Part shown: positions 31,524 to 57,521 of the stretch, piece after piece
Layout: each line of letters begins with the position of its first letter
Numbering within the stretch: position 1 is the stretch's first letter
Source: Pseudomonadota bacterium
GTDB lineage: Bacteria; Desulfobacterota; Desulfobacteria; Desulfobacterales; JAHIVH01
Direction of reading: 5' to 3'
NCBI GenBank assembly: GCA_018816735.1
Contig: JAHIVH010000081.1
Coordinates: 1-64,000 of the forward strand
DNA length: 64,000 nt
Position numbers and translations under genes: made by a program
The notes under the pieces: generated by a model
Database searches by the model: none
Told to the model about the DNA's origin: nothing
Seen by the model: only the letters and a program-made list of their open reading frames with translations

Positions 31524-33335
31524 TCAGCTTCTCGATTTTAGTGTATCCGGATTGTACAATGCTGTCGGATTGGTTGTTTTGATATATTGTTTAATGCCGT
31601 TGATGATAGCGTCACATAATGACTCCTGATATTTGACATCTGTCAATCGTTTGCATTCTCTGGGATTGCTTATAAATGATGTCTCAATAAGAATAGCAGG
31701 CATCTGGGCGCCCAGCAATACGTAAAACGGCGCCTGTTTGACCCCTTTGTTGTTGATCTTGCTGTAATCTTGTTTCATTTTCGATGTCATGGTCTGCTGA
31801 ACAAACCCGGCCAGTCTGCTTGATTCATTAATTTTGGAGTTCTGCATCAATGAATCGAGAATCGACTGGAGGTCGCTGATATTTTTTGTGGATGTGGCAT
31901 TTTCCCTTGCGGCTACGGATATGGCAGCTTCGTCTGTGGCGAGATTCAGGAAATAGGTTTCGATACCATAAGCGTTAGCATTTCTGTGAGCGTTTGTGTG
32001 TATGGAAATAAAAAGATCCGCATTTTGGGTATTGGCAATGGCTGTCCGTTCTTCAAGGGTAATATACCGGTCATCGGTCCGGGTCATGATGACCTCGCAG
32101 TTCAAGGTTTCCCTGATTTTTTTTGCCAGTTTGAGTCCCAGCGCAAGTGTGATATGTTTTTCATGAACCCCTTTGAGGTAACCTCTTGCGCCATAGTCCT
32201 TTCCGCCATGCCCCGGATCAATGACAATGGTTTTTACTCCCAATGCAAGCTGCTGGGCAAGGGAGCCTGCAGGCAGATGGGGCGGCGGGGGTTGATTTCC
32301 CACAGGCGGTGGTGTGGCATTGTTTCTTTTGCCATTTATGGATTTTTTACCCCATACATCAATGACGATTCTGAATGGGTTTCTTAATGTAAAGACTTTA
32401 TAGTTGTCATATGATTTGATATCAATGACGACTCTTGCGGATTCAGGTGTATACTGACCAGCCCTTACATTTTTCAACAGGTTGTCATTAATCGGTATCT
32501 GACGGTTCAGCGATGGATCGATCCGGCTGTTTGCAAAATCGATGAATAATCGCTGGGGTTTATTGATGGACGGGTCCTTCCTAAGCATATGATGGGAATA
32601 GTTGGGCTCTCCATCGGTATCAACCACAACGCGGGTATAGCTGGGATTGGACCAGTATCTCAACGCCGTCACCACAGATTGTTTGCCCGCGGCCGATGGA
32701 ACATTATCAACCGAATCACCCATGTCATTCTCTGCATCGTTTGCGTTCTGATCCGAAATGATCGCCTCAATATCATCCGGTGCTGCTGATTGTGACGGTA
32801 GCGGAGCAAGGGGAATTTTGATTATCTTGGGTTTGATGGTTTTGGGCTTTTTTGAGCCAGATGACGCGACGGTTTCAGTGCGTGTTCTTCCGTTTAATTT
32901 TTTTGCAGCCTCAAGATGGTATCTGCTTTTGGGATAATCTTTGACTATTTTTTCAAGCAGATCAATGGATTTTTCTTCATCGCTCTTCAGCCACGATATG
33001 CTGTACAGGTCAAGATACAGGGTCCCTGCTTTGTAAAGGCCGGCTGGCGCCCAAGGTCCATTTGGATCGCTTTTATAGACATCGTGAAATTTTTCGATGC
33101 ACTTTAGCCAGTTTTCCCTGTATTTTTGTTTGGCTTTGCTGTTCATCAGCCGGGCAAGATGTTTTTCAGCCGCAAAATATTTTTCTTCGGAAGATGTTCC
33201 GGCATGAGATGAAGGTATGTATAAAAGAGGCATCAAAAAAAGAGTTGAGACTAAAACCAACCTTGTCATGATGTTGAATATGTTCCGGTTTAAGGTTCGC
33301 CTGGCAGGGCAGATGGCTGTATTGTTTTGAATCAT
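31524..33335 (-). CDS. N-acetylmuramoyl-L-alanine amidase with TPR-like and AMIN domains
   Basis: A 603-residue periplasmic cell-wall amidase (AmiC class). A signal peptide ends near SSHAG (about 46). Residues about 50-150 are a TPR-like helical repeat (YSKDPNG-like and FPKS-like turns), about 225-330 an AMIN domain that targets septal peptidoglycan, then a proline-rich linker (PPPVGNQPPPPHLP), and from about 368 the zinc amidase domain with IDPGHGGKDYGARG, SIHTNAHRN and ILIETSFISNPRE. It cleaves the amide bond between MurNAc and the stem peptide for daughter-cell separation. The TPR extension is unusual for AmiC. The start overlaps the mutS stop by four bases. Confidence 0.92.
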   Translation of the reverse strand: MIQNNTAICPARRTLNRNIFNIMTRLVLVSTLFLMPLLYIPSSHAGTSSEEKYFAAEKHLARLMNSKAKQKYRENWLKCIEKFHDVYKSDPNGPWAPAGLYKAGTLYLDLYSISWLKSDEEKSIDLLEKIVKDYPKSRYHLEAAKKLNGRTRTETVASSGSKKPKTIKPKIIKIPLAPLPSQSAAPDDIEAIISDQNANDAENDMGDSVDNVPSAAGKQSVVTALRYWSNPSYTRVVVDTDGEPNYSHHMLRKDPSINKPQRLFIDFANSRIDPSLNRQIPINDNLLKNVRAGQYTPESARVVIDIKSYDNYKVFTLRNPFRIVIDVWGKKSINGKRNNATPPPVGNQPPPPHLPAGSLAQQLALGVKTIVIDPGHGGKDYGARGYLKGVHEKHITLALGLKLAKKIRETLNCEVIMTRTDDRYITLEERTAIANTQNADLFISIHTNAHRNANAYGIETYFLNLATDEAAISVAARENATSTKNISDLQSILDSLMQNSKINESSRLAGFVQQTMTSKMKQDYSKINNKGVKQAPFYVLLGAQMPAILIETSFISNPRECKRLTDVKYQESLCDAIINGIKQYIKTTNPTALYNPDTLKSRS

Positions 33336-40661: not shown

Positions 40662-43600
40662 ATGATAATTAGACGGATGATTATTGTATTTCTTTTGGTG
40701 CTGAATTTCATATCCTGCGGTTCTGACGATATATCCAATGTAAACGATGGATATGAACCTGACGAAGGTTCCTATTCATTCACCGTAAACTGGCCTGAGG
40801 ATGTTTCGCAATCCGGAGAAAGGGTCGTCGCAGGAATAGCCATAGACTGTGAAGGTTCAGGCATCATAACTGTAAAAGCCGTTATGTATGATGAAAACAA
40901 CATGCTCCTGTCAGGTGGCGAATGGCCCTGTTCCCTCCATAGCGGCCAGATAACAGGCATCCCTGTGGGAACGAACAGGCGGTGTGTCATAACGGCGCTC
41001 AACGCATCGGAGACAGTCGTATATCAGGGAGAAGATACCGGAATAACAATAACAAAAGGGAATGTCGCGTATAGCAGTGATATCATCATGGAACTGGTGG
41101 ACAATCGTTCACCGGCAGCAACCATAACCGGTCCCATGAATAACAGCATTTTCGCGCCGGGCGATACTGTATTGTTCACTGGGAACGGCTCGGACAGCGA
41201 AGACGGAATCCTAAACGGAGACAGCCTGATATGGACATCAAACCTTGATGGGAAAATAGGAACAGGTGAAACTGTCTCAAGTTCGATGCTTTCAGAGGGC
41301 GCACACTTTATCATACTGCTCGTGACAGACAGTGATGGCGCTACAAACACTGACACGATAAAGATCATCATCGGTTCCCCCCCGGTTGTAGAGATCATCA
41401 GCCCGACGGATGGCAGCATGTATACTCAGGGGGATATGATATCTTTCAGCGGAACAGCCCTGGACAACGAAGATGGATCATTGGGCGGAGACAGTCTTGC
41501 TTGGACATCGAGCAGTAATGGTAAGATAGGAACAGGTGAATCTGTCTCACGTTCATCTCTTTCACCTGGGACGCATCAGATAACCTTCACGGCAACAGAT
41601 AGTGACGGTGTAACCGGCAGTGATACCATTCAGATAACAATTGCTTCAAAAACGCCACCAATGGCTGAAATAACCGACCCGCCGAATAACAGTACCTTTA
41701 TCGAAGGAGAAACCATAGCTTTTGCCGGAACAGGAACGGACATCGAAGATGATACTTTTGACGACACCCAATTGGTATGGACATCGAATCGTAACGGCAG
41801 GTTAGGAACGGGCGCGTCCCTTTCAACATCAGATCTTTCCACTGGCACGCATTTAGTAACATTCAGGGTCACGGATAGTGACGGTGAAAATAACAGTGAT
41901 ACCATTGTGATCGTCATAAAGGAAAATACACTGCCGGTTGCACATATATCCGGCCCGGCTGATTACAGCACATATCTTGCAGGAACACCTGTATCCTTCA
42001 ACGGAACAGGCACTGATGGGGAAGACGGCGTTTTGACCGGGGCCAGCCTGGTATGGACATCAAACTTGGACGGCTGGCTCGGTACAGGGGTTGTCATGTC
42101 ATCATCGGTTCTTTCGTCTGGCACACACGCGATAACGCTGACAGTGACCGATAGTGTTGATGCAAGTGACATGGACAGAATTCATATTGTTGTAGAAGCA
42201 GATTTGCCACCAGCCAATAATCCGCCAGTTGCTGAAATAACAGGCCCACAGAACCATAGCATTTATATTGAAAAAGAAACAGTCTCATTCAGCGGCAGCG
42301 GGACAGATGCAGAAGACGGCACATTGACTGGAACAAAGCTTGTGTGGTCATCAAACCGTGACGGTGAGATAGGCACAGGCAATTCCCTGGCAACATCGGA
42401 ACTTTCCATTGGCACACATGAGATTACACTATCGGTAACCGATGGTCGAGGCGCAAACGACAGTGCCCGTATCGAGGTGATAATTGAAGCCAACATGCCG
42501 CCAGTAGCTGCGATCACCAGTCCGCCAGATGGCAGCGAATATACTGAAGGGGCCATGGTCACATTGAACGGGACCGGAACAGATGAGGAAGATGGCGTAT
42601 TGATTGAAGACAGCCTTGTCTGGACATCCAATCGTGATGGTGACCTGGGAACAGATATGGCCCTTTCAACATCAGCGCTTTCCATTGGATTACACAGCAT
42701 CACATTGACTGTAACCGACAGTCACGGTGCAAGCCACAGTGATACCATCAATATATCCATAAACGAAAACACACCACCGGTTGCAGATATCACCAGCCCG
42801 GCCAACAACCGCACCTATATTCAAGGAGATCAAGTAACATTTAGCGGGACTGGAACAGACAGCGAAGACGGCACATTAAGTGGAGACAGTCTTGTGTGGG
42901 TATCGAGCATAAATGGCAGAATCGGAACGGGAATAGCAGTGTTGACTTCAACGCTTTCATTGGGGAAACATAAGATCACGTTGACGGCAACCGACAGTCA
43001 TGGCGCAACCAGCACAGATAACATTAATATAACGATAGCTGCCAATACATCGCCGGTTGCCACGATCACCAGCCCGGCAAACGGCAGCAAATATAAGCAG
43101 GGTACTACAGTATCGTTCAGCGGCACCGGGACTGATACCGAAGATGGCACGTTGAGCGGAACAAGCCTTGCATGGGTGTCAAGCCTTGATGGCAGCCTGG
43201 GAACAGGCACATCCGTGTCAAGCTCAACACTTTCCGTGGGTTCCCATACCATCACCCTTACGGCAACGGATCATCATGGTGCAAGTGACTTTAAAACTGT
43301 TCAAATAGAAATATATGTCAATACACCGCCGGTGGCTGATATCAGCAGCCCGCCAGATGGTAGTAAGTATACGCAAGGAACCGCGGTATCTTTCAACGGA
43401 ACAGGGACAGATACACAAGACATGACATTGAGCGGCAGTAGCCTGTCGTGGAACTCAAGCCGTGATGGTAATTTGGGAACAGGCATTTCGGTATCGAGCT
43501 CTTCGCTTACCCTTGGTACCCATGTCATCACCCTCACGGCCACGGACAAAGATGGCGCAACAGGCAGCGATACGATTCAGGTCATTATTGAGGCGCCCAA

Positions 43601-43880
43601 TTCGCCGCCAGTAGCTGCAATCATCAGCCCGGCAAACGGCAGTACGTATGCGCAAGGAGAAACAGTATCTTTCAATGGCACCGGGACAGATGGGGAAGAC
43701 GGCACATTGAGCGGCAGTAGTCTCGAATGGACATCAAACCTTGATGGCAGGCTGGGAACAGGCACATCCGTATCAATCTCAACGCTTTCCGTTGGACCTC
43801 ATACAATAATCCTCTCGGTAACGGACAGTGATGGTGCAACAGACATCGATACAATCGAAATCACAATAAGCACCCTATGA
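40662..43880 (+). CDS. Lipoprotein with ten tandem Ig/PKD-like repeats
   Basis: A 1072-residue secreted lipoprotein. The N-terminus MIIRRMIIVFLLVLNFISCG has a lipobox with Cys19; the next residue is Gly, predicting outer-membrane sorting. Residues about 35-147 are a beta-rich domain I do not recognise. From about 151 to the end are ten repeats of about 92 residues, each starting PPVAxITSPxxGSxY, then VSFxGTGTDxEDGTL, WTSNxDGxLGTG and ending GTHxITLTxTDSxGA. This is the PKD/bacterial Ig pattern, with Asp/Asn-rich turns that could bind calcium. Such proteins are adhesins or extended surface stalks. No C-terminal sorting signal is seen. It precedes the DUF1566/ABC/vWA genes on the same strand. 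Confidence 0.85.
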   Translation: MIIRRMIIVFLLVLNFISCGSDDISNVNDGYEPDEGSYSFTVNWPEDVSQSGERVVAGIAIDCEGSGIITVKAVMYDENNMLLSGGEWPCSLHSGQITGIPVGTNRRCVITALNASETVVYQGEDTGITITKGNVAYSSDIIMELVDNRSPAATITGPMNNSIFAPGDTVLFTGNGSDSEDGILNGDSLIWTSNLDGKIGTGETVSSSMLSEGAHFIILLVTDSDGATNTDTIKIIIGSPPVVEIISPTDGSMYTQGDMISFSGTALDNEDGSLGGDSLAWTSSSNGKIGTGESVSRSSLSPGTHQITFTATDSDGVTGSDTIQITIASKTPPMAEITDPPNNSTFIEGETIAFAGTGTDIEDDTFDDTQLVWTSNRNGRLGTGASLSTSDLSTGTHLVTFRVTDSDGENNSDTIVIVIKENTLPVAHISGPADYSTYLAGTPVSFNGTGTDGEDGVLTGASLVWTSNLDGWLGTGVVMSSSVLSSGTHAITLTVTDSVDASDMDRIHIVVEADLPPANNPPVAEITGPQNHSIYIEKETVSFSGSGTDAEDGTLTGTKLVWSSNRDGEIGTGNSLATSELSIGTHEITLSVTDGRGANDSARIEVIIEANMPPVAAITSPPDGSEYTEGAMVTLNGTGTDEEDGVLIEDSLVWTSNRDGDLGTDMALSTSALSIGLHSITLTVTDSHGASHSDTINISINENTPPVADITSPANNRTYIQGDQVTFSGTGTDSEDGTLSGDSLVWVSSINGRIGTGIAVLTSTLSLGKHKITLTATDSHGATSTDNINITIAANTSPVATITSPANGSKYKQGTTVSFSGTGTDTEDGTLSGTSLAWVSSLDGSLGTGTSVSSSTLSVGSHTITLTATDHHGASDFKTVQIEIYVNTPPVADISSPPDGSKYTQGTAVSFNGTGTDTQDMTLSGSSLSWNSSRDGNLGTGISVSSSSLTLGTHVITLTATDKDGATGSDTIQVIIEAPNSPPVAAIISPANGSTYAQGETVSFNGTGTDGEDGTLSGSSLEWTSNLDGRLGTGTSVSISTLSVGPHTIILSVTDSDGATDIDTIEITISTL
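41112..43870 (+). repeat. Ten in-frame coding repeats of about 276 bases
   Basis: The repeats of the lipoprotein gene. Copies 7-10 (about 42770 to the end) are most alike in both protein and DNA, sharing stretches such as ATCACCAGCCCGGC and GGAACAGGCAC. Copies 1-4 have diverged more. This gradient suggests recent duplication or conversion near the 3' end. Mirror-image frames on the minus strand in this region are a by-product of the repeat. Confidence 0.85.
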
Positions 43881-43974: not shown

Positions 43975-44670
43975 GTGGTAAATAAATCAAAAAAATATGG
44001 TCAAAACGAAGACGAACGTTCTTTTGCCCGTGCCCAAAAATTAAGGAATTTGAAGTTTGCAGCCTGGGGGGTTATTTTAGGCATTTTTCTTGGGGTATTG
44101 TATATATTTTTTGCTGTTTTTTTTATGGATAATGGGCAGGTGCTTAAGGTGTCAAAGGATGGTGCTGATCCGGTCAATCGAATTACTGTTAATAAAATTC
44201 CACCACATACAGCAGTGCAAAATATTCCGGAACCATCAGATAAACCGAAAATCGTCCGGCATGACGATTATTTCATTCTTTACACCAACGGTGTTGTTAT
44301 TGATACTAAAAATAATCTTATGTGGGCAGATTCGGATAATGGAGAAGACATTAACTGGAAGAATGCAAAAAAATATTGTGATAATTATCAGGGAGGCGGA
44401 CATACAAACTGGCGTATGCCAACTGTTAATGAACTTTCTACCCTTTATAAAAATGACAAGGAAGGTGTTAAACCCAAATGCTGCCCGTCATGTCCTGCCA
44501 TGCGTTTGTCAGACTGCATTCAATTGAGTTGTTGCAGTGTGTGGTCAGTAGATACGCAAGGAACCAAGGCATTTGATTTTGACTTTTGTTTTAATTCAAA
44601 AGCGATTGGTGATAGAAGTGAATCGGAAGATCTGCGCGTGCTCCCTGTCAGGAGCTATCAGACGAATTGA
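43975..44670 (+). CDS. Single-pass membrane protein with DUF1566 domain
   Basis: A 231-residue protein. A charged cytoplasmic N-terminus (about 1-28) precedes one membrane helix (about 29-52); the rest should be periplasmic. Residues about 105-231 form a DUF1566 (Lcl C-terminal) domain: VVIDTKNNLMWAD, WKNAKKYCDNYQGGGHTNWRMPTVNELSTLY, and a closing DLRVLPVRS. This C-type-lectin-related fold resembles the FGE-sulfatase-like domains used as periplasmic sensors. A cysteine cluster (CCPSCP, DC, SCC) sits in the middle and is unusual for the family. The start is GTG with no clear ribosome site, so it may be mis-set. The ABC transporter gene follows 66 bases later. Confidence 0.75.
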   Translation: MVNKSKKYGQNEDERSFARAQKLRNLKFAAWGVILGIFLGVLYIFFAVFFMDNGQVLKVSKDGADPVNRITVNKIPPHTAVQNIPEPSDKPKIVRHDDYFILYTNGVVIDTKNNLMWADSDNGEDINWKNAKKYCDNYQGGGHTNWRMPTVNELSTLYKNDKEGVKPKCCPSCPAMRLSDCIQLSCCSVWSVDTQGTKAFDFDFCFNSKAIGDRSESEDLRVLPVRSYQTN

Positions 44671-44736
44671 ATTGTTTTGTATCCAGGGATGTTTTGTTTA
44701 ACGAATGAGTTAACACGACCAAACGGCGGAGTGATG

Positions 44737-46872
44737 ATGTTCTGTAAAAGCAAAATTGTTTTAAAAGACATTTACAAAACATATAAACATAAAAGAGTAC
44801 TGGATATTGATGAAATAACGATTCCGCTGGAAGGCATCGTGGTTATCGTGGGTTGGTCAGGATCGGGTAAAAGCACACTGTTGAATATTCTGAGCTTGAT
44901 TGATCATCCCGATGTCGGCATTAAAGGGATGACGCCTAAAATCGAGTTCCACTTGCCACGATATCAATACAATGTTTCTTATCGAGGCAGTTCCACACAC
45001 CCTTATATTGAAAGAGTCGATTCATCGGGTAACATAGAGATTTTGGATGAAAGAAGATTCAGAAGGCATGTGTTTGGTTTTATTTTTCAGGAGCATTATC
45101 TTCATCCCAACCTTAATCTGGATTACAATATAAAGACGCCTTTATTTACAAGGCAAAGAACGATTGTTTCCGAGGAAAAATTCATAAACGCCTGCAATGT
45201 TCTTGATATCAGCGAACACTTAAAACGGTTCTCAAGTAAAGTGTCCGGCGGGCAGGCGCAGCGGGCATCCATTATGAGAGGGTTGTTAAAGAATTCTCCG
45301 TTGCTTTTTGGAGATGAAATTACCAGTAATATTGATCAAATCTATTCTGAACGTATTTTAAAAGAAATTTCTTATGCAATAAAAGATGACAACAATAACC
45401 TGACGGCATTTCTATGGGTTTCCCATGATATTCATCTGGTCAAGGATTATGCAGATTATATTGTTACCATCAAGTCCGGAAAACTGGACGCCACGGATCA
45501 TAAATTCGAATCCTTTGATGCGATCATGATGTATTTGAAATCTGAAGATAAGGATGCAGAAAAATCGTTTTCCCCTGACACTGCTATTTTCCGGTTTGAT
45601 GACAGGCGTGCCAATTGGAAAGAACTTTTTAAATATTACTTTTTATACGCATATAATGATCTTTTTAAAAATGTCCTGTTGCCAACCGTTGATTTTATAG
45701 TGGTTGTCCTTTCTTTATCATTTGTCATTCTATTTTTGTTCTCCATTATTAAAATTAGCTATGCGTCACATAAATATCTGGAACTGAAGCTTTCCGACCC
45801 CAGAATTAACTTCCTTGAAATCAGGGCAAACGAAAAAATCGGGGAACTCAACCTGAGTCACGTGAAACAGCTGGAAAAAGCGCTTGGTGACTCCATCCGG
45901 TTCATTACGCCTGTGTATTATTCAACAGTATTTATTAAAGACATGAACAGGAAGATGTTCAGCAGCAACAGCAACGCGATCACGTTCAGACGCGCTGATC
46001 CGATTATCGAGGAAATTACAAAGGCGGCTTCCTTATCTTTCATAACGGACAAAAATAATTTTCAGGGCATCATTTTAAAAAGAGATCGTGCCGTATCATT
46101 TGGATATCAAAAAGACACAGATTATGTGACGATCAGCTTTAACAATTTTAATATCCGGAAAGGGGATCAAAAAATCCCTGTCTACTTGACGGATTCCGAG
46201 CTTCCCTTTAATAAAACCATGATGATCAGGGAAGAATTCTATATTGAAAATTATAAAAAATCGATTGACGAGGAAATACCCCCCATCGCTTTTATAAAGA
46301 TATATCCAAAGTCCATTTATGATACGATAAAAATTAAACAAATATCAGACCAGATGGGATGTTACGAACTCATTGATGCATTCAAGGTCGATAATAAAAT
46401 TACTGTTTTGGACGAGATTAAAAATCAGAGCAAAATTTTTGTCTGGCTTTCAATTGCGGCAGTGACCCTTATGGCGGCCTTTTTTGTGGGCATCACGATT
46501 TACAGAAGCATTTATAAAAAACGAATGGAAATAGGCGTGTTCCTGGCATATGGCATGCGGAAACGGTCTTTTCAAATATTCTACCTATGCGAATCCATCA
46601 TTATTTTTTTTGCGACACTGGTTTTGACGCTGTTTGTTTATCGGTACATCATTGAAAACCTTATCAATGAAATGATCATTAAGGGAAATATGTTAAAAGT
46701 TGTCGGTGCCATGCAATCTGATGGCGTCATCAGTTATGACCGGCTGCAAGTGCCGTTCTCCTGGTTATTTTATATTTACGGTTCAACATATTTGGTTTTA
46801 ACCTTGCTTTTTATTTTTTTTATATTTCAGTTTACGTCCCGGAAGCCCATAACGCTAATGCGGGATGCATAG
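44737..46872 (+). CDS. Fused ABC ATPase-permease of the MacB/LolCDE class
   Basis: One 711-residue chain with an N-terminal ABC ATPase and a C-terminal permease. ATPase: Walker A GWSGSGKST (about 39-47), Q-loop FIFQEHYLHPNLN, signature VSGGQAQRAS, Walker B LLFGDEITSNID, H-loop VSHD. An extra segment of about 30 residues lies between Walker A and the Q-loop, and the usual DEPTxNLD is DEITSNID. Permease: TM about 315-338, a periplasmic domain of about 210 residues, then three helices near 582-606, 622-645 and 683-705, the mechanotransmission (type VII) layout. Such proteins use ATP to move periplasmic partners or lipoproteins, not cytoplasmic solutes. GGCGGAG precedes adjacent ATGs at 44734 and 44737. 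Confidence 0.85.
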   Translation: MFCKSKIVLKDIYKTYKHKRVLDIDEITIPLEGIVVIVGWSGSGKSTLLNILSLIDHPDVGIKGMTPKIEFHLPRYQYNVSYRGSSTHPYIERVDSSGNIEILDERRFRRHVFGFIFQEHYLHPNLNLDYNIKTPLFTRQRTIVSEEKFINACNVLDISEHLKRFSSKVSGGQAQRASIMRGLLKNSPLLFGDEITSNIDQIYSERILKEISYAIKDDNNNLTAFLWVSHDIHLVKDYADYIVTIKSGKLDATDHKFESFDAIMMYLKSEDKDAEKSFSPDTAIFRFDDRRANWKELFKYYFLYAYNDLFKNVLLPTVDFIVVVLSLSFVILFLFSIIKISYASHKYLELKLSDPRINFLEIRANEKIGELNLSHVKQLEKALGDSIRFITPVYYSTVFIKDMNRKMFSSNSNAITFRRADPIIEEITKAASLSFITDKNNFQGIILKRDRAVSFGYQKDTDYVTISFNNFNIRKGDQKIPVYLTDSELPFNKTMMIREEFYIENYKKSIDEEIPPIAFIKIYPKSIYDTIKIKQISDQMGCYELIDAFKVDNKITVLDEIKNQSKIFVWLSIAAVTLMAAFFVGITIYRSIYKKRMEIGVFLAYGMRKRSFQIFYLCESIIIFFATLVLTLFVYRYIIENLINEMIIKGNMLKVVGAMQSDGVISYDRLQVPFSWLFYIYGSTYLVLTLLFIFFIFQFTSRKPITLMRDA

Positions 46873-46905
46873 ACTTTTATTTCAACATGAAAGGAGTCTT
46901 ATACA

Positions 46906-49107
46906 ATGAAAGGGGTTGCCATTTCCATCGGCATTTTGTTGTATCTGATGGTTACAAATGTTTTTGCCGGGGATTTCCTGACAATCACGTCTTCGGATAT
47001 AACATTATATGAATCGCCTGCTACCGGTTCATCAAAAATAAACCCGGTAGACAACTTATTTGGGAAATCATTTGAGAAGCTGGAAAAAAGCGGTGAATTT
47101 TACAAAATACGATATTCTGATTCCCAAAATGCATTTATCTCTGCACATGAATCATTTTTGGAGAATACGTCCCCATCGAATTATATTTTAGCAAAACGTC
47201 TGCCCGGATCCAAACTCTTCCAAAAGGCACTCATTGTTAACAGACCGGACGCGAGCGGATTGATCGTATCCGATATCAGCTATTTCTCAAGCCCTTCCCT
47301 GAAGGCGCCTTATTTAGGGAAAATTACCATTTTTGAAATCAGATACATTTATGGAACAGCTGAAAATTCAATTCTGGTCGGCCGGACAGACAGAATGGAA
47401 AAAGGAAATTCCGACGCTGTGCTGGTCGGGTGGATAGATAAAAAACACATCATTGAATGGAATAATCTTGTGGGGGTTGAATTTGACAAAACGAATTATG
47501 ACAAACGGTTGAAATGTGAAGCCGGAAAGATTTTTGCTGAGCCGACAGATCTGGCCATCAAAGGCATGGCCCCTGTATTTAATGAAAGCAAATCGTCAAA
47601 CGAGCTTCCCTACTATGCCAATCGGTTTCCGGTTCTCGATCAATTAAACGATCCCGTACCTTGCTATAAAATTGCTTATATCGGGAGTGCGTTTGGAACG
47701 GGTGGTAAACAAGCGGACATGGGGGAGGTTGATGCGGCCCGCAATCAGATCATGCAAATTTTAAACATGAATGCCATCCAGATTGCAATTCTGATTGATG
47801 CGACAAGTGGAATGAGAGAGCATATTGAAAATGTCAAAAAGGCAGTTCAGGAATTTTTAAGCGAATTATCAGCAGAAGGGCAGCTAAAAGCCGAAATTGC
47901 AGTTTGCGTCTATAGAGATTATCCGGATGGTGATAAAATTTTCAGGGCAAAAAGCGATTTCAGTTCGGATATCGTCGAACTACAGAACAGAATCTCCACC
48001 ATACGCGTGTATAGCAATAGAAATGACAATGGGGCCGGGGCTTTTCCGGAAGCGATGTTTCATGGTATTGACCAGACGATCGAGCAGCTTTCATGGAATA
48101 AATCAATAAAAGGAGAAAAGTATATACTGCTGATTGGCGATCACGGTAATCATAATCAATATGACCAGTACCCTGAGGACAGGGTGTACAGCGCCCCTTT
48201 GATTGGTCAAAAACTGAAGGAAAATATGATCTCACTTTTCGCGCTTCAGGTGAATATTTCTGAAAACAAGAGAATTTACAATGAAATGTTTGAAAGGCAG
48301 GTCCTTGATATCAAGCAGAATAATCAGGGATTAGGCAGTTTGAAAAAAATATACGGCCGGTCGGATGAAGAAATTTTATCAGGCCTCAAGGATATACTCA
48401 TTGATTTTTCGGTGATAAAAACGGCACTGGCGGGTGTGAGGGACAGTACGTCCATATTGGGCAAGATTTACACCGGTGTTTTTACTCAAAAACTGCTTGA
48501 ACGGTATCATATCAAAACGGACGTGTTTAATGCAGTTCAGATTTGTGACATCGGGTATGTCCCTTTTAAAAATGCCTGCGATCATAATCAATTTTTTGAG
48601 AAGGTGTTAATCACCCGGAAACAGCTTGAATCGTTAAAAGTGCAAATGCAGGAGATGTCGGACGCGGCCATGTATTACTACCCTGAATCAGAAGATAAAT
48701 TCAGGCAGATTGTATTTATGGTTGTCAAAGCTTTAACCGGAGATGAACTCGCGCCAAATGAGGAGATCGCGGCGTTTATAGAAAAGAAAACGGGCATTCC
48801 GGTCAATACCGAACTTTTGCGTCTTACAATAGATCAGCTGCTTGATAATGTCCGTGATAAAAGATTTCGAAAAGTTCTAAGGAAATATCTGGAAGAACGG
48901 ATCATGTATATCGACAGTGTTATCAAGGAGAAGGTGCTTAAAGACAAAGTCTGGGATAAAAGTGCTGAACGGTTTTTATATAATATATCGGATAATGATA
49001 TTCATTATTTTTTTTCTCTGGAGCAACCCATTCCTGAACGCGGAAAAGTGGGCGTATTACTTTCCAGAAAAAATTACGCCTGGATGCCTCTGGAGTATTT
49101 GCCATAA
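46906..49107 (+). CDS. Periplasmic von Willebrand factor A protein, PpkA-C-terminus-like
   Basis: A 733-residue exported protein. The signal peptide ends near VFAG (22). Residues about 28-85 and 120-180 look like SH3b-like beta domains. A vWA domain spans about 292-450: the metal-site motif is DATSGM (298-303, DxTxG instead of DxSxS), followed by VYRDYPDGD (D338) and LLIGDHGNH. After it, about 535-690, comes a segment with VLITRKQLESLK and a helical bundle. From memory, a DTTxSM-type vWA, a YRD turn and an LLTxxQLxxL segment also mark the periplasmic C-terminus of the T6SS kinase PpkA; the kinase half is absent here. AAAGGAG precedes the ATG; 33 bases separate it from the ABC gene. Confidence 0.75.
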   Translation: MKGVAISIGILLYLMVTNVFAGDFLTITSSDITLYESPATGSSKINPVDNLFGKSFEKLEKSGEFYKIRYSDSQNAFISAHESFLENTSPSNYILAKRLPGSKLFQKALIVNRPDASGLIVSDISYFSSPSLKAPYLGKITIFEIRYIYGTAENSILVGRTDRMEKGNSDAVLVGWIDKKHIIEWNNLVGVEFDKTNYDKRLKCEAGKIFAEPTDLAIKGMAPVFNESKSSNELPYYANRFPVLDQLNDPVPCYKIAYIGSAFGTGGKQADMGEVDAARNQIMQILNMNAIQIAILIDATSGMREHIENVKKAVQEFLSELSAEGQLKAEIAVCVYRDYPDGDKIFRAKSDFSSDIVELQNRISTIRVYSNRNDNGAGAFPEAMFHGIDQTIEQLSWNKSIKGEKYILLIGDHGNHNQYDQYPEDRVYSAPLIGQKLKENMISLFALQVNISENKRIYNEMFERQVLDIKQNNQGLGSLKKIYGRSDEEILSGLKDILIDFSVIKTALAGVRDSTSILGKIYTGVFTQKLLERYHIKTDVFNAVQICDIGYVPFKNACDHNQFFEKVLITRKQLESLKVQMQEMSDAAMYYYPESEDKFRQIVFMVVKALTGDELAPNEEIAAFIEKKTGIPVNTELLRLTIDQLLDNVRDKRFRKVLRKYLEERIMYIDSVIKEKVLKDKVWDKSAERFLYNISDNDIHYFFSLEQPIPERGKVGVLLSRKNYAWMPLEYLP

Positions 49108-49184
49108 AAAATGATATGAATAGCCGCAGGATTACAGCAGGTTTATTTTAGAAAATATGACCCGGAATAAAAGGATTCTTTAAA

Positions 49185-49769
49185 ATGCGGATCGCCTACA
49201 AAAGATCATTTGCCATGACAGTCATTGCAATTGCATCGATTTTTCTACTGGTTTCATGTGCGCCAAAAGTCAATCGTATTAATCGGCCTTCCATGATCGT
49301 GAAGACCATGGTGCTTTCAAAAGGCATACATGAAGCGAACCGTCAGGTTCAGATACATGGCAGCGACGATTCTTTTAGCATGAATGATGAAGAAATATGT
49401 GCATCCATGCAAATATCAAATTTTATCGGTGAGCATAAATTCAGGTGGGAATGGATCAGACCGGATAACCAATTATACTATTCAACGGGCAACCATCAAT
49501 TAAAAGCAGAAAAAAACAAATACATGAAAAGTGTAACCGCATTTCACAAACTCGGCATAAAAGGCAAGGAAGCTGAAAAATTCCCCGGAAACTGGAAAAT
49601 AAATCTCTATATGGATGATGAACCGGTTGCATCAAAAATGTTTGCCTTGAAAAAAGGGAAAGCCGTGAAGGACGTAATCGTACCGCCGGAACCCGTTGAT
49701 AACGCGATAGACAGGCCTAAACCGGAACATACCAAAACCAAACTTTTGAAACCAACGCCAAACCGGTAA
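49185..49769 (+). CDS. Small outer-membrane lipoprotein of unknown function
   Basis: A 194-residue lipoprotein. The signal ends in the lipobox LVSC (Cys25), with Ala next, so outer-membrane sorting is expected. The mature part is a single beta-rich domain (FRWEWIRPDNQLYYSTGNH, WKINLYMDDEPVASKMF) followed by a proline- and lysine-rich tail (about 170-194). The WxWxxP...G.W.v.i..dg pattern resembles domains in periplasmic partners of signalling systems, but I cannot name the family. It follows the vWA gene by 77 bases and would occupy the TagQ-like place in the module. Confidence 0.68.
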   Translation: MRIAYKRSFAMTVIAIASIFLLVSCAPKVNRINRPSMIVKTMVLSKGIHEANRQVQIHGSDDSFSMNDEEICASMQISNFIGEHKFRWEWIRPDNQLYYSTGNHQLKAEKNKYMKSVTAFHKLGIKGKEAEKFPGNWKINLYMDDEPVASKMFALKKGKAVKDVIVPPEPVDNAIDRPKPEHTKTKLLKPTPNR

Positions 49770-49850
49770 CAAAAATGGAAATGCAGCAATCTTTTTTTTA
49801 ATGGAAGGAAACGTTAAAAAAGGATTACAAATAAAAGAAAGAAAACGATT

Positions 49851-50186
49851 ATGACACACTATAAAAAAATTCTGTCTTATTGGGTTATTTTTTTCACCGT
49901 CAATATGTATGTTACGAATGTCACCGTTTTTAATATTCCTTTGTTTGATAACACTGCCATGGCCACCGAGAAATCTCCGGAGTTCATTTTATCAGAAGAA
50001 CTCGATTATCCAGCAGATGATATGGATAAAAAAGACACCCGGCACTGGTTTTCAAGAAACAAATGGTGGGTGGCCTTTGGCGTTGCCATCATTGCAGGCA
50101 CAGCGGCCGCAATCGCTGCCAACAATGGCGGCAATAATGATGGATCAGGCGGAGAGGACACAGGGGATTATAATGTCACCTGGTAG
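49851..50186 (+). CDS. Small membrane protein with Gly/Asn-rich tail
   Basis: A 111-residue protein not recognised as a known family. It has a hydrophobic N-terminus that could be a signal peptide (about 8-30, cleavage perhaps after AMA), an acidic middle, then WWVAFGVAIIAGTAAAIAA (about 73-92) and a tail NNGGNNDGSGGEDTGDYNVTW. A short glycine-zipper-like helix followed by a Gly/Asn tail is common in small exported proteins of Proteobacteria. It is the last plus-strand gene of the envelope module and ends 52 bases before the alanine dehydrogenase stop. Confidence 0.6.
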   Translation: MTHYKKILSYWVIFFTVNMYVTNVTVFNIPLFDNTAMATEKSPEFILSEELDYPADDMDKKDTRHWFSRNKWWVAFGVAIIAGTAAAIAANNGGNNDGSGGEDTGDYNVTW

Positions 50187-53510: not shown

Positions 53511-55463
53511 TCAGGTTTTAAATATGGCAATCAGTTCATTCAATTTTTTTGCCAGTTTGGATTGATCCTCGGCACTTTGTTTCACTTTAAAGCTGCTTTC
53601 AAGCATGATGTCCGCAGATGCATTGACAGCTGATATGTCGTTTGCAATATCGTCTGCGGCTGTTGAACTTTGCAGCAGATGGTCACTTATTTCCGAAACA
53701 CCCTTGGATGCCTGGGATGCATTTTCAGCAATCTCCCTGGTTTTTAATAGTTGCTCATCTACGGCTTTTGATATCATTTCGACAATATGGCTGACATCGT
53801 TTATGACTGTTGAGGTGGTTTGAATTTCTGTCACTGCCGTTGATGTGTAAGATTGAATATCCTCAATCTTCTTTTTGATATTAAGGGTTGCTTGTGCCGT
53901 CTGCCTGGCCAGTTCTTTGATTTCATTGGCAACCACGGCAAACCCTTTTCCGGATTCACCTGCCCGGGACGCCTCAATCGTGGCGTTTAGCGCAAGGAGA
54001 TTGGTCTGACCTGAAATGTTTGAAATAACCTCCGTAACCTCATTGATTTCCGATGCGTATTCTCCCAGTTCTTCAACCATTTTGGATGTTTTGAAGGTCT
54101 GATCCACGGCATTATTTGAAATTGTATTGGCATTTACCGTTTTCTGAGCAATCTCGTAAAATATATCCGTAATCTGGCGCGTGGCTTCTGACACCATATT
54201 GACATTTTGTGCGGTCTGTTCCATGGCGGATGCGATTGTATGAACGGTCCTGCTCATCGTTTCTGCAGCCTTGCTGACGCTGTTTGTTTTTTCGGAGACC
54301 GCTTCAACGCTTTCAGCCATAGTGCTTGACAGGTGGGACATATTTTCGGATGACTGATTCAGCGTTTTTGCATTGTTTGACAGATTAAGAAAAATTCCTT
54401 GCAGTTTTTCAATAAACTGGTTCACACTGCCTGCCAGATCGCCGACTTCATCCTTGGACGAGATGCGAAGTCTTGTGGACAGATCGCCATCTGTCAGTGT
54501 CATGATGCCCTTGATCACAGAGGATATGGGTTTGATGATTGACGCCGCAGACAAAAAGCTTGCAAGGATGCCCAGAATCACGGCACAGGCAATCATGCCG
54601 ATTATTTTTGTCCGGGTTGTAATTATTTTTTTTTCAACATCCTGCCGGGCCTGTTCCATCTCGTCCCAGCCTTCTGTAGTGATATTCCGGGCAAGGTTGA
54701 TTATTTGAGGTGCAATCGGGAACAGATCTTCTTTAATGTCTTCTTCCATTTTTAATGATACAGCTACAAGCCCTTCAAAGGTATCCAGATATTCTTCCAC
54801 GTCATATTTTATTTTTTCGATATCCTGCCTGTCTCCTGGCGCTAAACTGTCAAGAATGTTTTCAAGTACTTCAGACGTTGCTTCCGAATATTGATGATCA
54901 AGCGTTGCCAGAAAACGTTCCACAAGGATACGCACTTTAAGAAAGTGTTTTAATATGTCACCCAGATCCGCACTGGCGGTTTCTTCAGATTTGTTTTGTA
55001 TATGTGTATCAAGGCTGGCCGTTACCCGGTCACCTATATCATAAAGTGTTTTTCGGGTAGCGCTTCTTGCGGTGTGGCGTATGACGACATTTCTGAATTG
55101 TGCAATATATTTAACGCTTAAAATATTCATTGCTCTTATTGTCTCAAGCGTTTTCAGGTTTGCTGTACGTTTTTCCGCTGTCTTGAAAAGGGATAGGACA
55201 CTTACGATTTCGGTTTCAGCTGCTTCAAGCTCATTTTCCTTTAGGGTGTTCAGGTATTTTTCGCACGAAAGCCGCATGGCGGAAATTCCTGATTTGATAT
55301 CGTCTGCAAGTTTGACATTTTCAGCAACATCTTTTGAAAGATAATTAACTTTTTTACCCAATTCACCGGTTTCATAAATGGAAATACCACCTACAATCAA
55401 AAGGAGAATGAGAATGAGTGCATATCCTGTAATGGATTTCGTTTTCAGACTGTTCTTAATCAA
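53511..55463 (-). CDS. Methyl-accepting chemotaxis protein with large periplasmic sensor
   Basis: A 650-residue receptor. TM1 about 13-31, a helical periplasmic sensor of about 255 residues (32-286), TM2 about 287-310, HAMP, then the signalling domain whose tip reads [36 protein letters not shown]. It ends in ELIAIFKT, without a CheR-tether pentapeptide. The start is TTG at 55463 after AAAGGA; the leader GAAAGGA(C/T)TTGC matches that of the receptor at 1417. The sensor is a helical-bundle type with unknown ligand. It lies 18 bases downstream of the adenylate cyclase gene on the same strand, so both are probably co-expressed. Confidence 0.93.
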   Translation of the reverse strand: MIKNSLKTKSITGYALILILLLIVGGISIYETGELGKKVNYLSKDVAENVKLADDIKSGISAMRLSCEKYLNTLKENELEAAETEIVSVLSLFKTAEKRTANLKTLETIRAMNILSVKYIAQFRNVVIRHTARSATRKTLYDIGDRVTASLDTHIQNKSEETASADLGDILKHFLKVRILVERFLATLDHQYSEATSEVLENILDSLAPGDRQDIEKIKYDVEEYLDTFEGLVAVSLKMEEDIKEDLFPIAPQIINLARNITTEGWDEMEQARQDVEKKIITTRTKIIGMIACAVILGILASFLSAASIIKPISSVIKGIMTLTDGDLSTRLRISSKDEVGDLAGSVNQFIEKLQGIFLNLSNNAKTLNQSSENMSHLSSTMAESVEAVSEKTNSVSKAAETMSRTVHTIASAMEQTAQNVNMVSEATRQITDIFYEIAQKTVNANTISNNAVDQTFKTSKMVEELGEYASEINEVTEVISNISGQTNLLALNATIEASRAGESGKGFAVVANEIKELARQTAQATLNIKKKIEDIQSYTSTAVTEIQTTSTVINDVSHIVEMISKAVDEQLLKTREIAENASQASKGVSEISDHLLQSSTAADDIANDISAVNASADIMLESSFKVKQSAEDQSKLAKKLNELIAIFKT

Positions 55464-55481
55464 TGCAAATCCTTTCAGAAA

Positions 55482-57521
55482 TTATTTTGATTCAAGGCGC
55501 CAATACGGTTGATCTGTATCATTCAGCAGGGGTGTTTTATGGCTCATGAATTTGGAATAATGAAAACATGCGGGCCCGAAACCCGGATAGTTTTCAAGAA
55601 TTTTATTAAGCTTAACTTTTGCCTGCTCAAACTCATGTCGATCCAGCAAGTTGAGGTATTCGTAAAGGGCATTGTATGCATCAACAAATAATTTATGAGA
55701 AATCGTGTATAGATTGATGGGCTCTTTTTTGCCTTTTACAGCCACTCTTGCCATGGGAAAAACCGTATCCGGAATTTCTTCTGTCAGTGCGTTAATACAT
55801 TCTCCGGAAATACTTATCCGTACATCAAAATATTGGGATACACCTTTAACCCGGGATGCGGTGTTGACATTATCACCTATGGCGGTGTAATCAATAAATA
55901 ATTCTGAGCCGATATTGCCGACAACTGCTTCTCCGGTGTGAAGGCCAATTCTCATATGGAGTTCGGTCATCCCCTGTTTCTTTCTTTTACGATTGGCATC
56001 ATCGAGCAGGCGGAGCATTTCCATAGCGGCTTTAAGGGCCAGATCAGCATGATTTTCCTGATGTTCCGGAGCGCCCCAGAACGCCATAATACCATCTCCC
56101 AGATATTTATCTAAAGTTCCCTGATGGTCAAATATGGCTTTTGTCATGACTTTCAGATGTTCCTTAAGCATGGGAATGATCGATTCCGGCGGTAGTGTTT
56201 CCAAAAGTGTCGTGAAACCGGCGATATCTGCAAACAGGAGGGTAATGGTTGCCCTGTCTCCGGCCATGGCAAGCTGGGCCGGATTTTCCATGACATGCCT
56301 GGCCACACGCTCCGGAATATAGTGGAAAAGCTGGGCGCGTGTCAGAAGATGCCTGTCCCTTTCTTGCAGATACCGTTTCCCGAGGATGAAAACATAAAAG
56401 GTGATGCTAAAAAAGAGAAAAGGCATAAAAGGCGTGATCAGGTGATAGTAAAAAAGTGCCATGTTGATAGTGACCAAAACAATCAAAAAGCCGATCAGGG
56501 CAAGAAAACTCTTAAGAGGCGCATGGATGTTGATCATGGTCAGGCTGAACAAAAAGACCCAGCCTATGAACATAAATGGAAAAATCACTGGTGAAATCAA
56601 ATATTTAATTTTTCCAGCTGTGAGTGAGGCATAGGCACTGGCCCGGATTTCAACGCCGGGCATCATTTCATGGCCCCAGGGAATGGAAAACATATCCGAT
56701 TGCCGGTCCGGGGTGATGGATGCACTGCTGGTTTTACCGATGAAGACGACCTTGTCTTTTAATAGCTCTTTTTTAATGGCAAATAATTCAGGCTGAAAGA
56801 TTTCAAACCATGAAACCGAGGGTATGCTTCCAGAAGGCCCGAAATAATTAATAAAACCGGGTTCTGGCGGCTCTTCATCCGGGTGCGTTATGGCAAAAAG
56901 CGCCTGCTCCACCGTTGGAATGGGCTCATGATAGGACGATTTTAAGGGGAAATCGTTGAATATGCCGAAACAAAACCAGGATAGCGCCTCTCTGAATCCG
57001 GAAGGAAGGGTTCGGCTGTTGTGCATGTTTCTGATGCAATGATCAATATCCACAGGGACTGAAACGTTGCCTGCAAACGCACCGTGATCCATAAAGCAGG
57101 ATAGCGGCGGAATGATTTTCGTATCACTGAATTCGCCTGCAAGAACCGTGGGAATTTTTATAATACTTTCTTCAAGAGAAAAGTCATCTTCTTCACCAAA
57201 CCCTGACGGGATATCAAAAATAATATCGAGAAAAACTGCTTTTGCACCGGCTTCTGACAGATGATTCAATACTTTTGCATGAAATGATCTTGGATAGGGC
57301 CAGTGAAGACCGTTCATTTCTTCTGAAACAAGGTCAAACGTATTGTCATCAATGGAAACGATCATGATATCTGAAGGCGGCGGCGAATAGGAGAGATAAA
57401 GCGTATTTGTGTCGTAAATGACCCGTTCTGCCTGAAGCCCGATGCTGCTTGCAGAAAGAAGAATGGCAATCCCTGAAATAATAATAATGGTAAATGTGAT
57501 TTTTAAAATGTGTCTGTTCAT
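55482..57521 (-). CDS. CHASE2-domain class III adenylate/guanylate cyclase
   Basis: A 679-residue membrane cyclase. One N-terminal helix, an extracytoplasmic CHASE2 sensor (about 30-310; marks VIYDTNTLYLSYSPPPSDIMIVSIDD, FLDIIFD, KDKVVFIGKTSS), three closely spaced helices (about 315-390), then the catalytic domain (about 425-610): LLFADIAGFT with the metal aspartate, KYLGDGIMAFWGAPE, and RIGLHTGEAVVGNIGS. It should make cAMP (less likely cGMP) in response to an envelope signal. It precedes a chemoreceptor gene by 18 bases. Confidence 0.93.
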   Translation of the reverse strand: MNRHILKITFTIIIISGIAILLSASSIGLQAERVIYDTNTLYLSYSPPPSDIMIVSIDDNTFDLVSEEMNGLHWPYPRSFHAKVLNHLSEAGAKAVFLDIIFDIPSGFGEEDDFSLEESIIKIPTVLAGEFSDTKIIPPLSCFMDHGAFAGNVSVPVDIDHCIRNMHNSRTLPSGFREALSWFCFGIFNDFPLKSSYHEPIPTVEQALFAITHPDEEPPEPGFINYFGPSGSIPSVSWFEIFQPELFAIKKELLKDKVVFIGKTSSASITPDRQSDMFSIPWGHEMMPGVEIRASAYASLTAGKIKYLISPVIFPFMFIGWVFLFSLTMINIHAPLKSFLALIGFLIVLVTINMALFYYHLITPFMPFLFFSITFYVFILGKRYLQERDRHLLTRAQLFHYIPERVARHVMENPAQLAMAGDRATITLLFADIAGFTTLLETLPPESIIPMLKEHLKVMTKAIFDHQGTLDKYLGDGIMAFWGAPEHQENHADLALKAAMEMLRLLDDANRKRKKQGMTELHMRIGLHTGEAVVGNIGSELFIDYTAIGDNVNTASRVKGVSQYFDVRISISGECINALTEEIPDTVFPMARVAVKGKKEPINLYTISHKLFVDAYNALYEYLNLLDRHEFEQAKVKLNKILENYPGFGPACFHYSKFMSHKTPLLNDTDQPYWRLESK

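What the first reader, a model, noticed from the sequence alone, without database searches (positions are those of the whole stretch)
43975..50186. Kinase-free envelope module resembling the T6SS threonine-phosphorylation sensor (leading candidate new system)
A DUF1566 membrane protein, a MacB/Lol-class ABC transporter, a periplasmic vWA protein, an outer-membrane lipoprotein and a small membrane protein are in one run. In Pseudomonas the T6SS sensor branch uses an FGE-like periplasmic protein (TagR), an ABC pair (TagST), a lipoprotein (TagQ) and a kinase with a periplasmic vWA (PpkA). Here the same kinds of parts occur with ATPase and permease fused, without kinase, phosphatase or secretion genes. 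It may be a free-standing mechanical sensing or surface-assembly device, perhaps for the adjacent repeat lipoprotein.
Basis: partly seen in the sequence, partly recalled or inferred. Interest (0 to 1): 0.8.

Follow-up and report, generated by a model that had tools for sequence, protein, structure and literature searches.

The report
Divergent kinase-free TagRST-type envelope sensor module
A bacterium of the order Desulfobacterales carries a stripped-down, rearranged relative of the cell-envelope damage sensor that triggers the type VI secretion gun in Pseudomonas, here without its kinase and away from any secretion genes, which suggests that the sensing device is more versatile than the weapon it is known for.

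Summary
In detail: five co-directional genes encode a TM-anchored Lcl_C (DUF1566) protein, a fused ABC-FtsX transporter, a secreted vWA protein, a lipoprotein and a small membrane protein. A 66%-identical fused ABC elsewhere sits behind two TagR-type FGE-sulfatase proteins; another relative's cluster holds a TagQ-like glycine-zipper lipoprotein. The fused ABC itself does not group with TagT, and Lcl_C is not detectably related to TagR by sequence. Related vWA-TagT-TagS-TagR cassettes without kinase are common in Desulfobacterota; 17 of 24 such genomes lack the T6SS sheath protein. T6SS-free tag/srf clusters were reported in 2013, so the kind is not new; this fused, Lcl_C-bearing variant (two, perhaps three genomes) is. 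The host genome also has a T6SS elsewhere, with its own kinase. Best reading: a kinase-free envelope-stress or mechanotransmission complex, probably with periplasmic output. Function is inferred, not shown.

The parts
43975..44670 (+). IM-anchored (TM 33-51) periplasmic Lcl_C (DUF1566, C-type-lectin-like) protein in the TagR/FGE position
   Evidence: PF07603 E 1.2e-16; TM; in G048 the same position is held by two TM-anchored FGE-sulfatase proteins
44734..46872 (+). Fused ABC ATPase-FtsX permease (MacB-like topology: NBD, 4 TMs, about 230-aa periplasmic loop); ORF opens at TTG 44677, likely start ATG 44734 or 44737
   Evidence: PF00005 E 8e-17, FtsX 6e-5; 45% to G006, 66% to the G048 fragment; Walker A GWSGSGKST, signature VSGGQ, Walker B LLFGDE, H-loop SHD read directly
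46906..49107 (+). Secreted vWA protein, PpkA-periplasmic-arm / TssR superfamily: N-terminal D1, vWA about 291-460, D3, C-terminus LP
   Evidence: TssR_M 27.1 bits, over cut-off; hhalign to the TPP-type vWA family E 4.8e-17, 485 columns; D1 and D3 alone E 3e-5 and 9e-5; motifs
49185..49769 (+). Lipoprotein (lipobox cysteine at residue 25) in the TagQ position; no sequence similarity to TagQ
49851..50186 (+). Small protein with possible N-terminal signal and Gly/Ala-rich TM (72-90)
   Evidence: no family match that passes a cut-off
40662..43880 (+). PKD-repeat lipoprotein upstream; membership of the module not supported
   Evidence: PF18911 E 7e-43; no match in the G006 cluster stretches

Best explanation
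A divergent, kinase-free member of the envelope-sensor superfamily whose best-known member is TagQRST-PpkA of the P. aeruginosa H1-T6SS. SHOWN by sequence: the secreted vWA protein is homologous along its length to the vWA arm of T6SS phosphorylation sensors; the ABC is of the MacB/LolCDE/FtsEX type with the NBD fused to the permease; related loci put TagR-type FGE proteins and a TagQ-type glycine-zipper lipoprotein next to the same parts. INFERRED: the Lcl_C protein (inner membrane), the vWA protein (periplasm), the ABC periplasmic loop and the lipoprotein (outer membrane) form one trans-envelope complex that detects damage or deformation of the envelope; ATP turnover in the ABC drives or resets the conformation of the vWA-Lcl_C assembly. 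With no kinase next to it, the output is most likely delivered in the periplasm by protein-protein contact, as FtsEX drives peptidoglycan enzymes, rather than by phosphorylating a cytoplasmic target.
For: vWA homology: E 4.8e-17, 485 columns, against about 120-180 columns for generic vWA proteins; shared motifs from GW...W in D1 to VLITKxQL in D3; 25/25 end in (L/M)P; D1 and D3 alone 3e-5 and 9e-5; shuffled controls 0.08-0.9. T6SS link: Tistrella pTM1 tssJKLM-tagF-PP2C-kinase-vWA-ABC-permease-SUMF1. TagR position: G048. TagQ-like lipoprotein pair in G006: glycine-zipper 36% over 216 aa, E 6e-30. Kinase-free and T6SS-free relatives. The TagQRST/PpkA pathway is needed for the response to mechanical and chemical outer-membrane damage (PMC11881912). 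Peptidoglycan enzymes (YkuD x2, M15, NlpC/P60, VanY-like, SpoIID) crowd the G006 cluster.
Against: The fused NBD falls outside the TagT clade, nearer LolD/MacB/FtsE/YbbA but on a long branch; permease similarity to TagS is marginal (E 3e-6 to one profile; weaker to single sequences). Window Lcl_C has no detectable similarity to TagR; the fold kinship is clan-level knowledge only. The window lipoprotein is not TagQ-like, and no relative of the G006 glycine-zipper lipoprotein was found in the genome. The third MIDAS residue is Gly instead of Ser in the window clade. The peptidoglycan-enzyme link is from one genome. The genome has a T6SS with a kinase that could take the signal in trans. No usable structure: AF2 models were poor.
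Confidence: 0.55

Rival explanations
1. It is the remote sensor of the host's own T6SS: the C44 kinase (kinase-TM-PEGA, no vWA) takes the signal in trans from the window module.
For: The genome has a T6SS on C44 and C125 with kinase and a TagF-like gene; G006, the other genome with the ABC and vWA together, also has T6SS; in Tistrella kinase and vWA are separate genes.
Against: The T6SS kinase has its own PEGA-type C-terminal part and sits by an FGE-PEGA gene, a possible local sensor; the G039 genome, with a vWA relative, has no TssC match, and neither do 17 of 24 genomes with the TPP-type vWA.
Confidence: 0.2
2. A MacB/LolCDE-class exporter or lipoprotein-localisation device that handles the adjacent lipoproteins, with vWA and Lcl_C as periplasmic adaptors.
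For: MacB-like fused topology; the NBD is as close to LolD and MacB as to TagT; lipoproteins are adjacent.
Against: No MacA/TolC-type partner in the run; the PKD lipoprotein is not matched in the G006 cluster; the vWA protein belongs to a sensor/T6SS family.
Confidence: 0.15
3. A TssR-like membrane-complex part for a contractile system (T6SSiii-type), not a sensor.
For: TssR_M hit over cut-off in the window protein; TssR_VWA hits in 11 of 25 family members; B. fragilis TssR has a three-domain layout with a central vWA and is needed for T6SSiii (PMC10781749).
Against: No TssN/O/P/Q recognised beside it; the host T6SS has TssJKLM-like genes; the nearest homologues sit with an ABC and FGE or Lcl_C proteins.
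Confidence: 0.08
4. Chance neighbourhood: unrelated envelope genes that happen to adjoin.
For: Only two genomes have the fused ABC and vWA together; the last two small genes have no family.
Against: ABC and vWA homologues recur together in G006, and vWA-ABC-permease-FGE recurs in about 25-30 other loci.
Confidence: 0.02

Closest known systems
TagQRST-PpkA threonine-phosphorylation sensor of the P. aeruginosa H1-T6SS
   Same: vWA arm (homologous, by way of the Tistrella T6SS cluster), FtsX-type ABC, a C-lectin-like protein in the FGE position, a lipoprotein
   Different: No kinase or phosphatase in the locus; ATPase and permease fused; Lcl_C instead of FGE; lipoprotein not glycine-zipper; vWA is a separate secreted protein; not linked to tss genes
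srfABC-linked, T6SS-free tag clusters of host-associated Deltaproteobacteria (PMC3608642) and of Klebsiella plasmids
   Same: Kinase-free vWA-TagT-TagS-TagR(-lipoprotein), no T6SS in most genomes
   Different: The window has no SrfA/B/C and only remote vWA similarity (about 16-20% identity)
Free-standing vWA-TagT-TagS(about 640 aa)-TagR-glycine-zipper cassettes in Desulfobacterota (L026, L027, L083, L086, L088, L097, L101)
   Same: Same kinds of parts, no kinase, no Srf; G006 shares their lipoprotein pair
   Different: Separate ATPase; FGE not Lcl_C; intact MIDAS serine
TssR of Bacteroidota T6SSiii
   Same: Layout with a central vWA; TssR_M and TssR_VWA profile matches
   Different: TssR is a lipoprotein working with TssNQOP in a secretion machine; no such partners here
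MacB / LolCDE / FtsEX type ABC transporters
   Same: Topology and ATPase family
   Different: NBD on a long branch; partnered with vWA and Lcl_C proteins

Membership tests
TagQRST-PpkA sensor (TPP) | vWA-bearing PpkA periplasmic arm | tested here: met
   Full-length profile homology to the vWA protein of the Tistrella T6SS TPP cluster and relatives; P. aeruginosa PpkA itself was not in reach, but its extracellular vWA sensor is documented (PMC3224232)
TagQRST-PpkA sensor (TPP) | Ser/Thr kinase (PpkA) and phosphatase (PppA) in the locus | tested here: not met
   No kinase match in the window; the nearest on the contig is 14 kb beyond the module, a 1722-aa ORF
TagQRST-PpkA sensor (TPP) | TagT-TagS ABC | tested here: inconclusive
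   Same ABC type, but the NBD is outside the TagT clade; permease E 3e-6 to the free-standing TagS profile
TagQRST-PpkA sensor (TPP) | TagR FGE-sulfatase domain protein | tested here: not met
   The window has Lcl_C, not FGE; FGE occupies the position in G048
TagQRST-PpkA sensor (TPP) | TagQ glycine-zipper lipoprotein | tested here: not met
   Window lipoprotein unrelated; a glycine-zipper lipoprotein is present in the G006 cluster
TagQRST-PpkA sensor (TPP) | Controls a T6SS | not testable with these tools
   A T6SS exists in the genome on other contigs; no linkage
TssR (T6SSiii) | TssR_M domain | tested here: met
   27.1 bits over the 25.7 cut-off
TssR (T6SSiii) | TssR N-terminal, VWA and C-terminal models over cut-off | tested here: not met
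   Not hit over cut-off in the window protein
TssR (T6SSiii) | Lipoprotein signal; TssNQOP neighbours | tested here: not met
   Signal peptide without lipobox; no such neighbours recognised
MacAB-TolC exporter | MacA-type adaptor and TolC in the locus | tested here: not met
   None in the run

The most novel reading that the evidence does not exclude
A self-contained, kinase-free envelope-damage sensor in which a fused ABC works on a PpkA/TssR-type vWA protein and a lectin-like protein to direct peptidoglycan or surface repair in the periplasm, implying that the T6SS retaliation sensor (and TssR of T6SSiii) was recruited from an older damage-response module.
Probability: 0.25. Interest if true: 0.8.

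Novelty: new variant of a known kind. Interest (0 to 1): 0.55.

Why it matters
How TagQRST senses damage and passes it to PpkA is unresolved. Kinase-free, T6SS-free relatives separate the sensing half from the weapon and make it testable alone. The data also suggest that TssR of Bacteroidota T6SS and the PpkA vWA arm belong to one superfamily, a link that the T6SSiii membrane-complex paper does not draw (PpkA is not mentioned in it).

Tried and rejected
PF06761 (IcmF) search for TssM: empty even in G006, whose T6SS contig holds a TssM-like ORF, so uninformative; replaced by a protein search. Viral-contig scan: no relatives. Named genome scan with the window-type profile: only the G006 record (MAG 'Desulfobacterales bacterium'); that tool seeds on short exact peptides, so absence elsewhere is weak evidence. 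PDB sequence searches with the vWA protein or family profile: no PpkA-arm or TssR match. Generic vWA proteins hit in the order and phylum searches (266-423 aa) align over the vWA fold only and were not counted as members. Lcl_C against TagR by profile: nothing. The kinase-Lcl_C fusion on C132 was considered as a partner and dropped: no TM segment was predicted.
Full report
What is there. The reported genes are present at the given coordinates. Gene 1 (43975-44670) is a TM-anchored protein with a periplasmic Lcl_C/DUF1566 domain. Gene 2 (44677-46872; probable start 44734 or 44737) fuses an ABC ATPase to a four-TM FtsX permease with a periplasmic loop of about 230 residues. Gene 3 (46906-49107) is a secreted vWA protein and hits Pfam TssR_M above its curated cut-off. 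Gene 4 is a lipobox lipoprotein and gene 5 a small one-TM protein. The window lies in a 6.5-Mb genome; a relative in the same order, G006, is a MAG titled Desulfobacterales.

Relatives of the vWA protein. One other genome of 194 from the order (G006) has two tandem copies (about 50% identity) with the fused ABC (45%) in the same cluster. More distant vWA hits in six genomes of the order (G171, G066, G071, G022, G060, G075) lie in one recurring operon: vWA, ABC ATPase, LolCE/FtsX permease, FGE-sulfatase protein, lipoprotein (two of the six loci are cut short by contig ends or masked bases). tblastn then tied that operon to annotated records: a Klebsiella plasmid with srfA-srfB-srfC upstream, Gluconobacter and Cereibacter plasmids with SrfB/SrfC, and a Tistrella mobilis plasmid where the order is tssJ-tssK-tssL-tssM-tagF-PP2C-kinase-vWA-ABC-permease-SUMF1, a genuine T6SS phosphorylation-control cluster with the vWA as a separate gene. 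P. aeruginosa PpkA could not be retrieved; its extracellular vWA sensor is documented (PMC3224232), and a 2013 single-cell-genome paper labels the equivalent genes in Deltaproteobacteria ppkA and tagQRST (PMC3608642).

Is the window vWA protein really in this family? Profile-profile comparison of the window clade with the TPP-type family gives E 4.8e-17 over 485 columns, from D1 through vWA into D3; generic vWA proteins from the same searches align over only about 120-180 columns. With the vWA domain cut out, D1 and D3 alone still match (E 2.7e-5 and 9.4e-5; column-shuffled controls 0.08-0.9). Shared motifs run from a GW...W pair in D1 to a VLITKxQL motif in D3, and all 25 proteins end in (L/M)P. 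TssR_VWA matches 11 of 25 members (best 2.6e-6) and TssR_M three, so TssR of Bacteroidota T6SSiii (three-domain layout with central vWA, PMC10781749) probably belongs to the same superfamily. In the window clade the third MIDAS residue is Gly, not Ser, so metal binding may be altered.

The other parts. A class-wide search of 389 genomes found the fused ABC only in the window genome, in G006 and as a 66%-identical fragment at a contig end in G048. In G048 the ABC stands directly behind two TM-anchored proteins with strong FGE-sulfatase domains, the TagR domain, in the place that Lcl_C holds in the window. The G006 cluster contains a glycine-zipper lipoprotein (36% over 216 aa to that of L027, E 6e-30) followed by a second lipoprotein like the one in free-standing cassettes; TagQ has been likened to the 17-kDa Rickettsia surface antigen (PMC3608642), whose Pfam family is a glycine zipper. 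Against this, the fused ATPase branches outside the TagT clade, the permease resembles TagS only weakly, window Lcl_C shows no sequence kinship with TagR, and the window lipoprotein has no TagQ likeness. The window module is therefore a superfamily member by its vWA protein and by the context of its relatives, not a TagQRST-PpkA system by definition.

Kinase and T6SS. There is no kinase in the window run. Of 395 phylum genomes, 60 hit at E 1e-10, but only 25, the window's own included, carry the full-length vWA protein; of the other 24, 17 have no TssC match, including single-contig genomes of 98-100% completeness. The cassettes read out are either Srf-linked or free-standing. So the sensor half often exists without T6SS, as noted for host-associated species in 2013. 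The window genome does have a T6SS split over C44 (TssA and TssC by profile; Hcp-, TssE-, TssF-, TssG-, ClpV- and VgrG-like ORFs by eye) and C125 (TssM by protein search; TssJ-, TssK-, TssL- and TagF-like ORFs by eye). Next to C44 tssA sits its own signalling set: FGE-PEGA, trypsin-like, kinase-PEGA. A remote link between that kinase and the window module cannot be excluded.

Mechanism. In P. aeruginosa, force and chemical damage to the outer membrane trigger H1-T6SS assembly, and deletion of tagQ or ppkA abolishes the response (PMC11881912). By homology I infer that the window module detects envelope disturbance through an outer-membrane lipoprotein, a periplasmic vWA protein and an inner-membrane Lcl_C protein, with the ABC transmitting or resetting conformation. 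With no kinase beside it, a periplasmic output is the simplest reading. The only contextual hint is the G006 cluster, where the module is surrounded by peptidoglycan enzymes: YkuD, M15, NlpC/P60, VanY-like and SpoIID domains. This step rests on one genome and is a proposal.

Verdict. The window form is a new, rare variant. Interest lies in a rearranged and minimal version of an unsolved sensor, and in the PpkA-arm/TssR connection.

Noticed in passing
L020, L021, L046 (G006): The window-type module lies in a cluster rich in peptidoglycan-active and YARHG/NlpC proteins: two L,D-transpeptidases, M15 peptidases, SpoIID, M14; two tandem vWA copies plus a short third hit to the vWA C-terminus.
   Followed up: partly
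L022:7774-14303 (G039): A TssR/PpkA-arm-like 884-aa vWA protein sits behind a ParA-like ATPase, a ClpB-D2-like AAA protein and a 402-aa protein, in a genome without a TssC match: possibly another T6SS-free envelope module.
   Followed up: partly
Alignment A5 (25 proteins): TssR of Bacteroidota T6SSiii and the vWA arm of T6SS phosphorylation sensors look like one superfamily by Pfam TssR_VWA/TssR_M matches.
   Followed up: partly
L111:850-2199 (G000 contig C132): A 449-aa Ser/Thr kinase with a C-terminal Lcl_C domain and no predicted TM in the same genome.
   Followed up: partly
L039 (G171) and L035 (G000 contig C102): A second, divergent TssC-like sheath protein; in G171 it lies in a locus with FHA proteins and a PP2C phosphatase.
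   Followed up: partly
L034:3178-9299 (G000 contig C44): T6SS-adjacent FGE-PEGA, trypsin-like, kinase-PEGA, TPR/CsgG genes: an unusual-looking T6SS signalling set.
   Followed up: partly
window 31524-33335: AMIN-Amidase_3 peptidoglycan amidase about 7 kb upstream of the PKD gene on the other strand.
   Followed up: no
window 53511-57521: CHASE2 adenylate/guanylate cyclase (55482-57521) next to a methyl-accepting-type protein (53511-55463).
   Followed up: no
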